DNA from: Arthrobacter sp. CAN_C5
GTDB lineage: Bacteria > Actinomycetota > Actinomycetes > Actinomycetales > Micrococcaceae
Length of the DNA stretch: 64,000 nucleotides
NCBI RefSeq assembly: GCF_017875735.1
Contig: NZ_JAGGMZ010000001.1
Coordinates: 3,720,001 to 3,784,000, forward strand
Direction: 5' to 3'
The notes below the pieces were generated by a model. That model was not told where the DNA came from. It saw only the letters and a list, made by a program, of their open reading frames with translations, and ran no database searches. Every line of letters begins with the position of its first letter. Within the stretch, counting starts at the first letter, position 1. Shown in pieces: positions 16,237 to 17,910 of the stretch. A program made the position numbers and the translations under genes.

Positions 16237-16409
16237 GCGCGTCCGATATAACGGGCGCGTCCGCAGAAATCAGGCACGGCAACGGGGGGGGGTGTCCCTA
16301 TGTTCTTTGTCAAGCTGGTTGGGTGGTTTCGGAGATTGGGGTTTGCCGGGTTTTTGGGCAGGAGGGAGTGGCCGGTGGCGCGTGGTCGGCCGGCTGCTGG
16401 GCTGGTTGT

Positions 16410-17609
16410 TTAGGCGGCTTTGACCGCGGGTGCCTCGTATAGCACTCCGTCGCGCAGCATCGCGAACAGGACATCGCAGCGGCGTCTGGCGAGGGCGATC
16501 AGGGCCTGATTATGCCGTTTGCCTTGGGCTCGTTTGCGGTCGTAGTACGCCCGTGAGACGGGGTCTTTCAGGGCCGCGAATGCGGAGAGGAAGAACGCCC
16601 GTTTGAGGATCTTGTTGCCCTTTTTTGAGGAGTGGTCTCCTCGGATCGAGGTACCGGATCGCCACGTCACCGGCGCGAGTCCGGCGTAGGATCCCAGATG
16701 CCCGGCGGTCTTGAATTCCTTGCCTGCAACCTCGGTAATGATCCGTGCTGCCGTCCTGACGCCGACCGCCGGTAGGGACGTCAGGAGTTCGTGAAGAGGG
16801 TGGGCCTCCACGATGGCTTCAACCTGGGTCAGAACCTCGGCACGAGAGGTGCGTAGTTGGGTCAGCTGCGCGGCGAGTTGGGGCAACACGACGCCGGCGG
16901 CGCCAGTGCCGGCCACGACTACGCTCTGCTCACCCAGAGCGGTGAAGATCTCTTCTGCCCAGCGCCTGCCGGCCCGCGGCGCGGACTTGGCCATGAACGC
17001 GGCGACCCGGCTCTGGCCAGCCCGGCGCAGAGCCTCAGGGGCAGGGTATTTCCGCAGCAGTTCGGCCATTACGGGGTGGTCCAGGTGCGGGCCGATGGCC
17101 CGTTCCAGGGCCGGGTGGATCTGCGTGAGGAGCCCGCGGATCCGGTTCGAGGCGGCGGTGGCCTGCTTGGCCAGGTCGTCGTCGAAACCGCAGAGCATTG
17201 ACAGTTCCGCGGCCTGTTCATCGGCGACGGCAATCGAGCGCAGCGTGTGCGGCATGCTCCGGGCGGCCTCAGCAATGATGTAAGCGTCTCGGGCATCCGT
17301 CTTGGCCTCACCGGGGTGCAGGTCAGCGATGCGGCGCATCGCCAGGCCCGGCAGGTAACCGACGAGGATACCGGCGGCCTGCGCCACAGCGACCGGCAGT
17401 GCACCGATGGTGGCCGGCTGGTCCACGACGAGTAAAAGCGTGCCGTGCTTGGTGAGACTGTCGATGATCGCCCGCAGTTTCGCCTCGTCTTGCGGCAGTG
17501 CCTTATCGAGCAGTTTCTTGCCGTTCCTGTCCAACGCCACCGCGTGGTGGTTGGACTTACCGACATCGACGCCGATAAACACATCGACGAGTTCGTGATC
17601 CTTAATCAC
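16410..17609 (-). CDS. IS110-family transposase (DEDD recombinase)
   Basis: The 399-residue recombinase has an N-terminal RuvC-like DEDD domain (about 8-160) with Asp15 in FIGVDVGKSNHH, VDQP near residue 63 and KTDARDAY (Asp105, Asp108), then a C-terminal Tnp_20 domain with PAVGVRTAARII and GLAPVTWRSGTSIRGDHSSKKG carrying the candidate catalytic Ser. The second acidic position is Asp (DQP) rather than Glu. The GTG start at 17609 has GGAGG eight bases upstream. The gene is full length and apparently intact. Confidence 0.93.
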   Translation of the reverse strand: MIKDHELVDVFIGVDVGKSNHHAVALDRNGKKLLDKALPQDEAKLRAIIDSLTKHGTLLLVVDQPATIGALPVAVAQAAGILVGYLPGLAMRRIADLHPGEAKTDARDAYIIAEAARSMPHTLRSIAVADEQAAELSMLCGFDDDLAKQATAASNRIRGLLTQIHPALERAIGPHLDHPVMAELLRKYPAPEALRRAGQSRVAAFMAKSAPRAGRRWAEEIFTALGEQSVVVAGTGAAGVVLPQLAAQLTQLRTSRAEVLTQVEAIVEAHPLHELLTSLPAVGVRTAARIITEVAGKEFKTAGHLGSYAGLAPVTWRSGTSIRGDHSSKKGNKILKRAFFLSAFAALKDPVSRAYYDRKRAQGKRHNQALIALARRRCDVLFAMLRDGVLYEAPAVKAA

Positions 17610-17654
17610 TACTACCTCCAGAGGTGAAACCCAATGAGACCGTGCTGGTCTGTC

Positions 17655-17860
17655 CTGCGGCCCCAGAGCTCGGCATCCACGTTACGGCCGACCTACCACG
17701 ATGGTGTCTGCAGCTGGTCCGGTCCCCATTAGCGATCCTCTGGCGCCTATCGAACCCCGGTGACAACACCCCCGGATCATACATTCGACTGGGGGACTCA
17801 ATCATGCCAGGACCGACAGGCCAGCAACCCCGATTCTTGCTCGTTTAGGGGCTATAAGAA
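17655..17860 (-). ncRNA. Candidate IS110 bridge RNA (leader of the transposase)
   Basis: The 5' non-coding leader folds, read on the minus strand, into two successive stem-loops: an eight-pair stem (17814-17821 with 17745-17752, one G-U) enclosing a large loop with C5 and G5 tracts, and a six-pair stem (17738-17743 with 17663-17668) enclosing another large loop. This matches the target-binding then donor-binding loop order known for IS110-group bridge RNAs. The second loop contains GTAACG (complement of 17680-17685), complementary to the CGTTAC at the element's own left end. A TTATAG box near 17853 may be a -10 element. Confidence 0.55.
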
Positions 17861-17910
17861 AGGTAACGGGGGGTCGGGAGCGTTGGCCGGAATAAGGCGA
17901 GGTAATCGGG

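What the first reader, a model, noticed from the sequence alone, without database searches (positions are those of the whole stretch)
17610..17870. IS110 element carries a recognisable bridge-RNA-like leader with an element-matching guide
The 260-base non-coding leader folds on the minus strand into two successive stem-loops (stems 17814-17821/17745-17752 and 17738-17743/17663-17668) with large internal loops, the order known for IS110-group bridge RNAs. The second loop contains a six-base match (complement at 17680-17685) to CGTTAC at the element's own left end (17863-17868), as a donor guide should. The first loop carries C5 and G5 tracts plus GTTG, which could read the C6GTTGCC target around the insertion point. 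If correct, the RNA predicts target choice in G-tract hairpin regions.
Basis: partly seen in the sequence, partly recalled or inferred. Interest (0 to 1): 0.75.

Follow-up and report, generated by a model that had tools for sequence, protein, structure and literature searches.

The report
IS110 bridge RNA guided to poly-C tracts
This jumping gene carries a real guide RNA of the recently discovered 'bridge RNA' type, and the guide spells out a run of about ten C's, which is where this element and its relatives sit in other bacteria; it is a well-supported new example of a known mechanism with an unusual target.

Summary
The feature is real. ORF 16410-17609(-) is an IS110 recombinase, and its 258-base leader encodes a two-loop bridge RNA. 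In 50 relatives the stems covary (92 double-changed cells; shuffles 30.4, sd 5.3; slid registers at most 18). The donor side is confirmed and refined: the right guide GUAACGU pairs with AC-GTTAC, formed when the element circularises, and the left guide AU(A/G)GGG(A/G)C matches the right end, covarying across three sequence types. A TTGACN-17/18-TAnnnT promoter would form across the circle junction in nearly all of 117 sites. The target guide is homopolymeric (C5 and G5). Guides match their own sites better than in any of 10,000 permutations. Natural re-targeting supports this: relatives with guides ACGCUC/UGAGC sit in ACGCTC|GCTCA; one with right guide AAAAA sits at CCCCC|TTTTT, with empty sites in two genomes. 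Named ISfinder elements (ISEc20, ISBma3, ISArsp5) share this RNA, so it is a new member of a known kind. Poly-C homing and the donor AC versus target NC core are distinctive. Expression and activity were not tested.

The parts
16292..17867 (-). whole IS110 element (1576 bp), tnp orientation: GTTACC ... ATAGGGAC-AC
   Evidence: five copies in the genome share it and diverge outside; the end position was fixed by the empty site of a relative
16410..17609 (-). IS110-family recombinase, 399 aa (GTG start)
   Evidence: PF01548 E 7e-49, PF02371 E 9e-18, NF033542 E 2e-68 'IS110 family RNA-guided transposase'
17663..17852 (-). bridge RNA core: 5' stem-loop, target-binding loop, donor-binding loop (transcript ends inferred)
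   Evidence: alignment A1, consensus fold, covariance model R1
17827..17852 (-). 5' stem-loop GCCCC...GGGGU
   Evidence: same place as the IS621 5' stem-loop
17745..17821 (-). target-binding loop with closing stem GCCUGUCG/CGAUAGGC
   Evidence: covariation: 7 of 7 pairs of helix 2 have double changes
17791..17799 (-). left target guide GAGUCCCCC (C5 at 17791-17795)
   Evidence: matches left flanks in 117 sites better than 10,000 permutations; ACGCUC variants sit after ACGCTC
17768..17773 (-). right target guide GGGG plus core-pairing GU (17769-17768)
   Evidence: AAAAA and UGAGC/UGAGA variants sit at TTTTT and GCTCA/TCTCA
17766..17767 (-). GU at the handshake-guide position of the target loop
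   Evidence: complementary to the last two bases of the left donor (AC); position as in IS621; inferred
17663..17743 (-). donor-binding loop with closing stem CCAGAG/CUCUGG
   Evidence: covariation: 5 of 5 pairs double-changed, 90.4% of cells paired
17722..17729 (-). left donor guide AUGGGGAC
   Evidence: matches left donor ATAGGGAC with one G.T wobble; three LDG/LD types covary
17677..17685 (-). right donor guide GUAAC + core-pairing GU (17679-17680) + GG at the handshake position
   Evidence: perfect complement of AC-GTTAC; GG could pair with target CC; nearly invariant in A1
16294..16301 (-). left donor ATAGGGAC at the right end
16292..16293 (-). donor core AC
   Evidence: AC at 111 of 117 right junctions, CC at 6
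17863..17867 (-). right donor GTTAC at the left end
16284..16291 (-). target remnant right of the element: C8
17868..17873 (-). target remnant left of the element: C6 (reconstructed site C14)
16308..16313 (-). -35 box TTGACA in the right end; with TACCTT in the left end it forms a promoter only across the circle junction
   Evidence: TTGACN to TAnnnT spacing 17-18 in 115 of 117 sites
17860..17865 (-). -10 box TACCTT (TAnnnT) in the left end
   Evidence: TAnnnT in 116 of 117 sites

Best explanation
An IS110-group element whose left end encodes a bridge RNA. After excision the joined ends create a promoter that transcribes the RNA. Its donor loop pairs with the circle junction (LDG with ATAGGGAC, RDG with AC-GTTAC). 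Its target loop pairs with a poly-C tract: C5 in the left guide pairs with the bottom strand, and G4 plus GU (G5 plus GU in other copies) in the right guide pairs with the top strand. The DEDD/serine recombinase then exchanges strands just 3' of the core. The target core is usually CC and its second base C is nearly invariant. The donor core is AC. The left junction keeps the target core and the right junction usually keeps the donor core. Shown here: RNA structure by covariation, guide-to-end and guide-to-site matches, natural re-targeting, and exact insertion points with empty sites. Inferred: transcription from the junction, RNA binding, strand order, activity.
For: Five near-identical copies with poly-C flanks. 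Covariation of both closing stems. The RNA model finds homologues in 39 of 395 genomes of the class and in 135 of 247 genomes of one genus, and in ISEc20, ISBma3 and ISArsp5. 117 distinct sites with 20 guide pairs: guide-site matches LTG 588 against 555.1 (sd 5.2) and RTG 555 against 518.7 (sd 3.1), none of 10,000 permutations reaching either. Variants L042/L043/L049 (ACGCUC with UGAGC or UGAGA) and L140 (AAAAA) match; empty sites AAGTTCGCCCCC|TTTTTAGCC in two genomes and C9 with 100% identity for an ISEc20 site. LDG/LD covary over ATAGGGGC, ATAGGGAC and ATAGAGGC. Junction promoter geometry. Architecture and handshake positions as published for IS621.
Against: No RNA or transposition data. Single-sequence folding does not form the donor-loop stem. 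Sites are not independent: most share the C-guide by descent, and only about three or four guide changes are independent. L174's right side fits its guide but its left side does not, and a few actinobacterial loci read CACA|GTTACC against a C-guide. Two ISEc20 sites differ from the closest living empty alleles by more than a clean insertion. The window's own empty site is not preserved: the relative G145 lacks both tract and element.
Confidence: 0.93

Rival explanations
1. The C5 and G5 tracts are only a structural stem of the RNA; the poly-C site preference comes from the protein or from DNA shape.
For: C5 and G5 pair with each other in the free RNA with probability 0.94, and they are conserved together in most relatives.
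Against: In L140 the right guide is AAAAA while the left stays CGCCCC, so no stem is possible, and the right flank is TTTTT. L042/L043/L049 change both guides and both flanks, L049 differing by one base in guide and site together.
Confidence: 0.04
2. The leader is an attenuator or translation-control RNA for the recombinase gene, and the guide matches are incidental.
For: In the long transcript CCAGAG (17738-17743) pairs strongly with CUCUGG next to the ribosome-binding site (17618-17623).
Against: It does not explain covariation of the donor-loop stem, LDG/LD covariation or guide-site matching. It could coexist as a second role.
Confidence: 0.03
3. The poly-C flanks arise after insertion by slippage at element ends, so the apparent target is secondary.
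For: Tract lengths at the ends vary widely, up to C18-C20. The relative G145 has no poly-C at the window's site.
Against: An ISEc20 site is empty with an exact C9 in several genomes, the L140 site is empty with C5T5 in two genomes, and non-C guides have non-C flanks.
Confidence: 0.05

Closest known systems
IS621 bridge RNA (IS110 group, E. coli; PMC11208160, PMC11208158)
   Same: RNA in the left end; 5' stem-loop, target loop, donor loop; four guides; promoter across the RE-LE junction; handshake positions; no target duplication; second core base nearly invariant
   Different: core is CT there, here donor AC and target NC; IS621 targets REP elements; recombinase about 400 aa here, against 315-330 aa in the branch that includes IS621 (group sizes in PMC11187229)
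ISEc20, ISBma3, ISArsp5 (ISfinder names in PLSDB/RefSeq annotation)
   Same: same subfamily: covariance-model scores 138-148 bits, same ends, C/G guides and poly-C sites
   Different: other hosts; recombinase about 70-76% identical
ISAar29 bridge RNA predicted by Durrant et al. 2024
   Same: its ISfinder name suggests an Arthrobacter-type host (own knowledge); bridge RNA with guides predicted in the paper
   Different: its sequence and target are only in a figure that could not be read here, so identity with this subfamily is untested
seekRNA of ISEc21 and ISEc11 (PMC11187229)
   Same: RNA-guided target choice and natural re-targeting between relatives
   Different: ISEc11 is of the IS1111 type with the RNA downstream; targets differ

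Membership tests
IS110 family, IS110 group | DEDD RuvC-like domain PF01548 plus PF02371 | tested here: met
IS110 family, IS110 group | long left non-coding end upstream of the gene, short right end | tested here: met
   258 against 118 bases
IS110 family, IS110 group | site-specific insertion without target duplication | tested here: met
   empty against filled site of relative L140; ISEc20 C9 site
IS110 family, IS110 group | catalytic Asp/Glu and Ser residues | not tested
   only the domain matches were scored; residues were not checked one by one
IS110 bridge RNA | two successive internal loops closed by conserved stems | tested here: met
   covariation
IS110 bridge RNA | LTG/RTG complementary to the target, covarying with it | tested here: met
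IS110 bridge RNA | LDG/RDG complementary to the RE-LE junction, covarying with it | tested here: met
   RDG hardly varies, so only LDG was tested by covariation
IS110 bridge RNA | promoter reconstituted across the circle junction | tested here: met
   sequence only: 115/117 spacing 17-18, 116/117 TAnnnT
IS110 bridge RNA | RNA expressed and bound by the recombinase | not testable with these tools
   needs RNA-seq and binding
IS621 subgroup | CT core in donor and target | tested here: not met
   donor AC 111/117; target ends CC 110, TC 5, GC 1, CA 1
Rfam families | match to a curated RNA family | tested here: not met
   no related family at E<=5

The most novel reading that the evidence does not exclude
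A widespread IS110 clade (Actinobacteria, Burkholderia, a Duganella, and ISEc20 in about a quarter of complete E. coli genomes) specialises on simple-sequence poly-C tracts through homopolymeric, self-complementary guides whose length itself drifts by slippage, and uses a donor core (AC) that need not match the first base of the target core. No paper found in the held library describes this target class.
Probability: 0.5. Interest if true: 0.55.

Novelty: new member of a known kind. Interest (0 to 1): 0.45.

Why it matters
It gives a natural bridge RNA whose target is a homopolymer. That lets one ask how the recombinase sets its register when the guide cannot, how it opens guides that pair with each other, and whether the first core base must match. 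Poly-C tracts are classic slippage sites, so the element lands in places that already vary. The natural re-targeting events (ACGCTC, TTTTT) are ready-made reprogramming controls.

Tried and rejected
Rfam search: nothing. Folding energy as evidence: no signal. GACACC in the donor-loop hairpin (17703-17708) as the left donor guide because it equals GACACC at the right end: rejected, since that hairpin varies freely while AU(A/G)GGG(A/G)C covaries with the end. Target duplication: rejected by the L140 empty site. Core CT or CC in both partners: rejected by junction counts. A first parse of sites misplaced several ends and was replaced. Empty site for the window copy: the relative lacks the tract. 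Literature search for poly-C targets of IS110: nothing relevant.

Full report
OBSERVATION. The minus-strand leader of the ORF at 16410-17609 contains both stems at the stated places. The first closes the target loop and folds with pair probabilities 0.90-1.0. The second gets probability 0 in single-sequence folding, because in the full leader CCAGAG pairs with 17618-17623. The energy of the leader equals that of its shuffles (z -0.04). So the structure cannot be argued from this sequence alone; relatives were needed.

ELEMENT AND BOUNDARIES. The ORF is an IS110 recombinase (PF01548, PF02371, NF033542). The genome (3.86 Mb, in the same family as Arthrobacter judging by a contig shared) holds five nearly identical copies and several diverged ones. 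Aligning the five shows that they diverge inside C tracts at both ends. In gene orientation each reads Cn|GTTACC ... ATAGGGAC AC|Cn. The window copy has C6 on the left (17868-17873) and C8 on the right (16284-16291).

EXACT INSERTION POINT. A C tract cannot show where the cut lies, so a relative with a different site was used. L140 reads AAGTTCGCCCCC|GTTACC on the left and ATAGGGGCAC|TTTTTAGCC on the right. Two other genomes of the same genus hold the empty site AAGTTCGCCCCCTTTTTAGCC. The element is therefore GTTACC ... GGGGCAC, inserted without duplication, with at most one C of ambiguity. The donor circle junction must read ATAGGG(G/A)C-AC-GTTACC.

RNA STRUCTURE. Fifty distinct leaders, from Arthrobacter to Microbacterium, Leucobacter, Cryobacterium and a Duganella, align over 205 columns. 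For the 15 pairs of the closing stems, 94.9% of cells pair, 12 pairs have changes on both sides, and 92 cells are double-changed. Shuffles give 30.4 (sd 5.3), and sliding the partner by 1-3 columns gives at most 18. A covariance model built from them finds further homologues in 39 of 395 genomes of the class and in 135 of 247 genomes of the genus of L140.

DONOR GUIDES. The right donor guide is GUAACGU (17679-17685), a perfect complement of AC-GTTAC. The left donor guide is AUGGGGAC (17722-17729), matching ATAGGGAC at 16294-16301 with one G.T wobble. Across sites, left donors ATAGGGGC, ATAGGGAC and ATAGAGGC go with guides of the same type: 37, 33 and 8 sites respectively are matched in kind. 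One site is mismatched (ATAGGGAC with AUAGGGGC), the ISEc20 type ends in GGGGU, two further sites differ otherwise, and in 30 sites the guide was not parsed.

TARGET GUIDES. The left guide ends in C5 and the right guide is G4 plus GU (one G longer in three of the other copies). Among 117 distinct insertion sites with both junctions and 20 guide pairs, left matches sum to 588 (permuted 555.1, sd 5.2) and right matches to 555 (518.7, sd 3.1); none of 10,000 permutations reaches either. This test does not correct for shared descent. The telling cases are the few that changed guides. L042 and L043 (guides ACGCUC and UGAGC) sit in ACGCTC|GCTCA. L049 (ACGCUC and UGAGA) sits in ACGCTC|TCTCA. L140 (right guide AAAAA) sits at CCCCC|TTTTT. 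Intact copies of the same repeat lie beside L042, L043 and L049. L174 fits on the right only.

POLY-C. For 110 C-guided sites the reconstructed run has median 10. In the own genome only two runs of 10 or more C remain on either strand, one empty and one touching a diverged relative; of 13 runs of 8 or more, six touch an IS110 end (one search compared). ISEc20, found in 1455 of 5426 complete E. coli genomes, carries the same RNA (138 bits). One of its sites is empty with exactly C9 in other genomes.

CORE AND HANDSHAKE. The right junction has AC at 111 of 117 sites and CC at 6. The left junction ends CC (110), TC (5), GC (1) or CA (1). So the second core base is nearly fixed and the first follows its own partner, target on the left and donor on the right. 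IS621 is described with an almost invariant second core base and a less conserved first. In IS621 the right target guide pairs with the incoming donor core after exchange, and neighbouring handshake guides pair with positions 6-7 of the other partner. Here the target loop carries GU next to the right guide, complementary to donor core AC, followed by GU that fits the end of the left donor. The donor loop has GG where target CC would arrive. These fits are inferred.

PROMOTER. TTGACN in the right end lies 17-18 bases from TAnnnT in the left end across the joined junction in 115 of 117 sites, and TAnnnT is present in 116. This matches the published RE-LE promoter of IS110 circles.

COMPARISON AND NOVELTY. 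Every family feature that was tested by sequence is met; the CT core of IS621 is not. Bridge RNAs were predicted in 85.7% of catalogued IS110 elements, and natural re-targeting is published for others. Hence: a new member of a known kind. What I did not find described is a homopolymeric target and unequal first core bases. The held library lacks most subscription papers and ISfinder, so this is not proof of novelty.

WHAT REMAINS OPEN. RNA expression and activity; why a few loci read CACA|GTTACC; why two ISEc20 sites differ from living empty alleles (rtcB: GACTGCCCCAACCCCCTCGAG empty, GACTGCCCC| and |CCCCCTCGAG filled); whether tracts grow after insertion.

Noticed in passing
17618-17623 with 17738-17743 (-): In the full leader CCAGAG of the donor-loop stem pairs with CUCUGG beside the ribosome-binding site, a possible switch between bridge RNA fold and translation control.
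   Followed up: no
L001-L005, target loop (window 17769-17773): Copies in one genome differ by one G in the right target guide (window copy and L004 shorter), and L044 has a long G tract there: homopolymeric guides seem to mutate by slippage.
   Followed up: partly
L004/L006 (own genome 984863-987861): Two different IS110 copies lie head to tail with only AC-CCC between right end and left end; the extra C's would spoil the junction promoter spacing.
   Followed up: no
L213 and L215 (E. coli ISEc20 sites): Filled sites differ from the closest empty alleles (AA lost in the rtcB gene; ACA versus CCC-like sequence at the Nissle site), making the tract purer than any empty allele seen. Unexplained.
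   Followed up: partly
L042, L043, L049: Arthrobacter intergenic repeats with ACGCTC(G/T)CTCAC, present again near the insertions and partly palindromic, look like a REP-type repeat targeted by a sister element.
   Followed up: partly
L131, L134, L172, L174: Four actinobacterial loci read CACA before GTTACC although their left guides are C-rich.
   Followed up: no
L190 and L191: Diverged or partial relatives in the own genome, one bordering a C18 tract at 2301791-2301808.
   Followed up: partly
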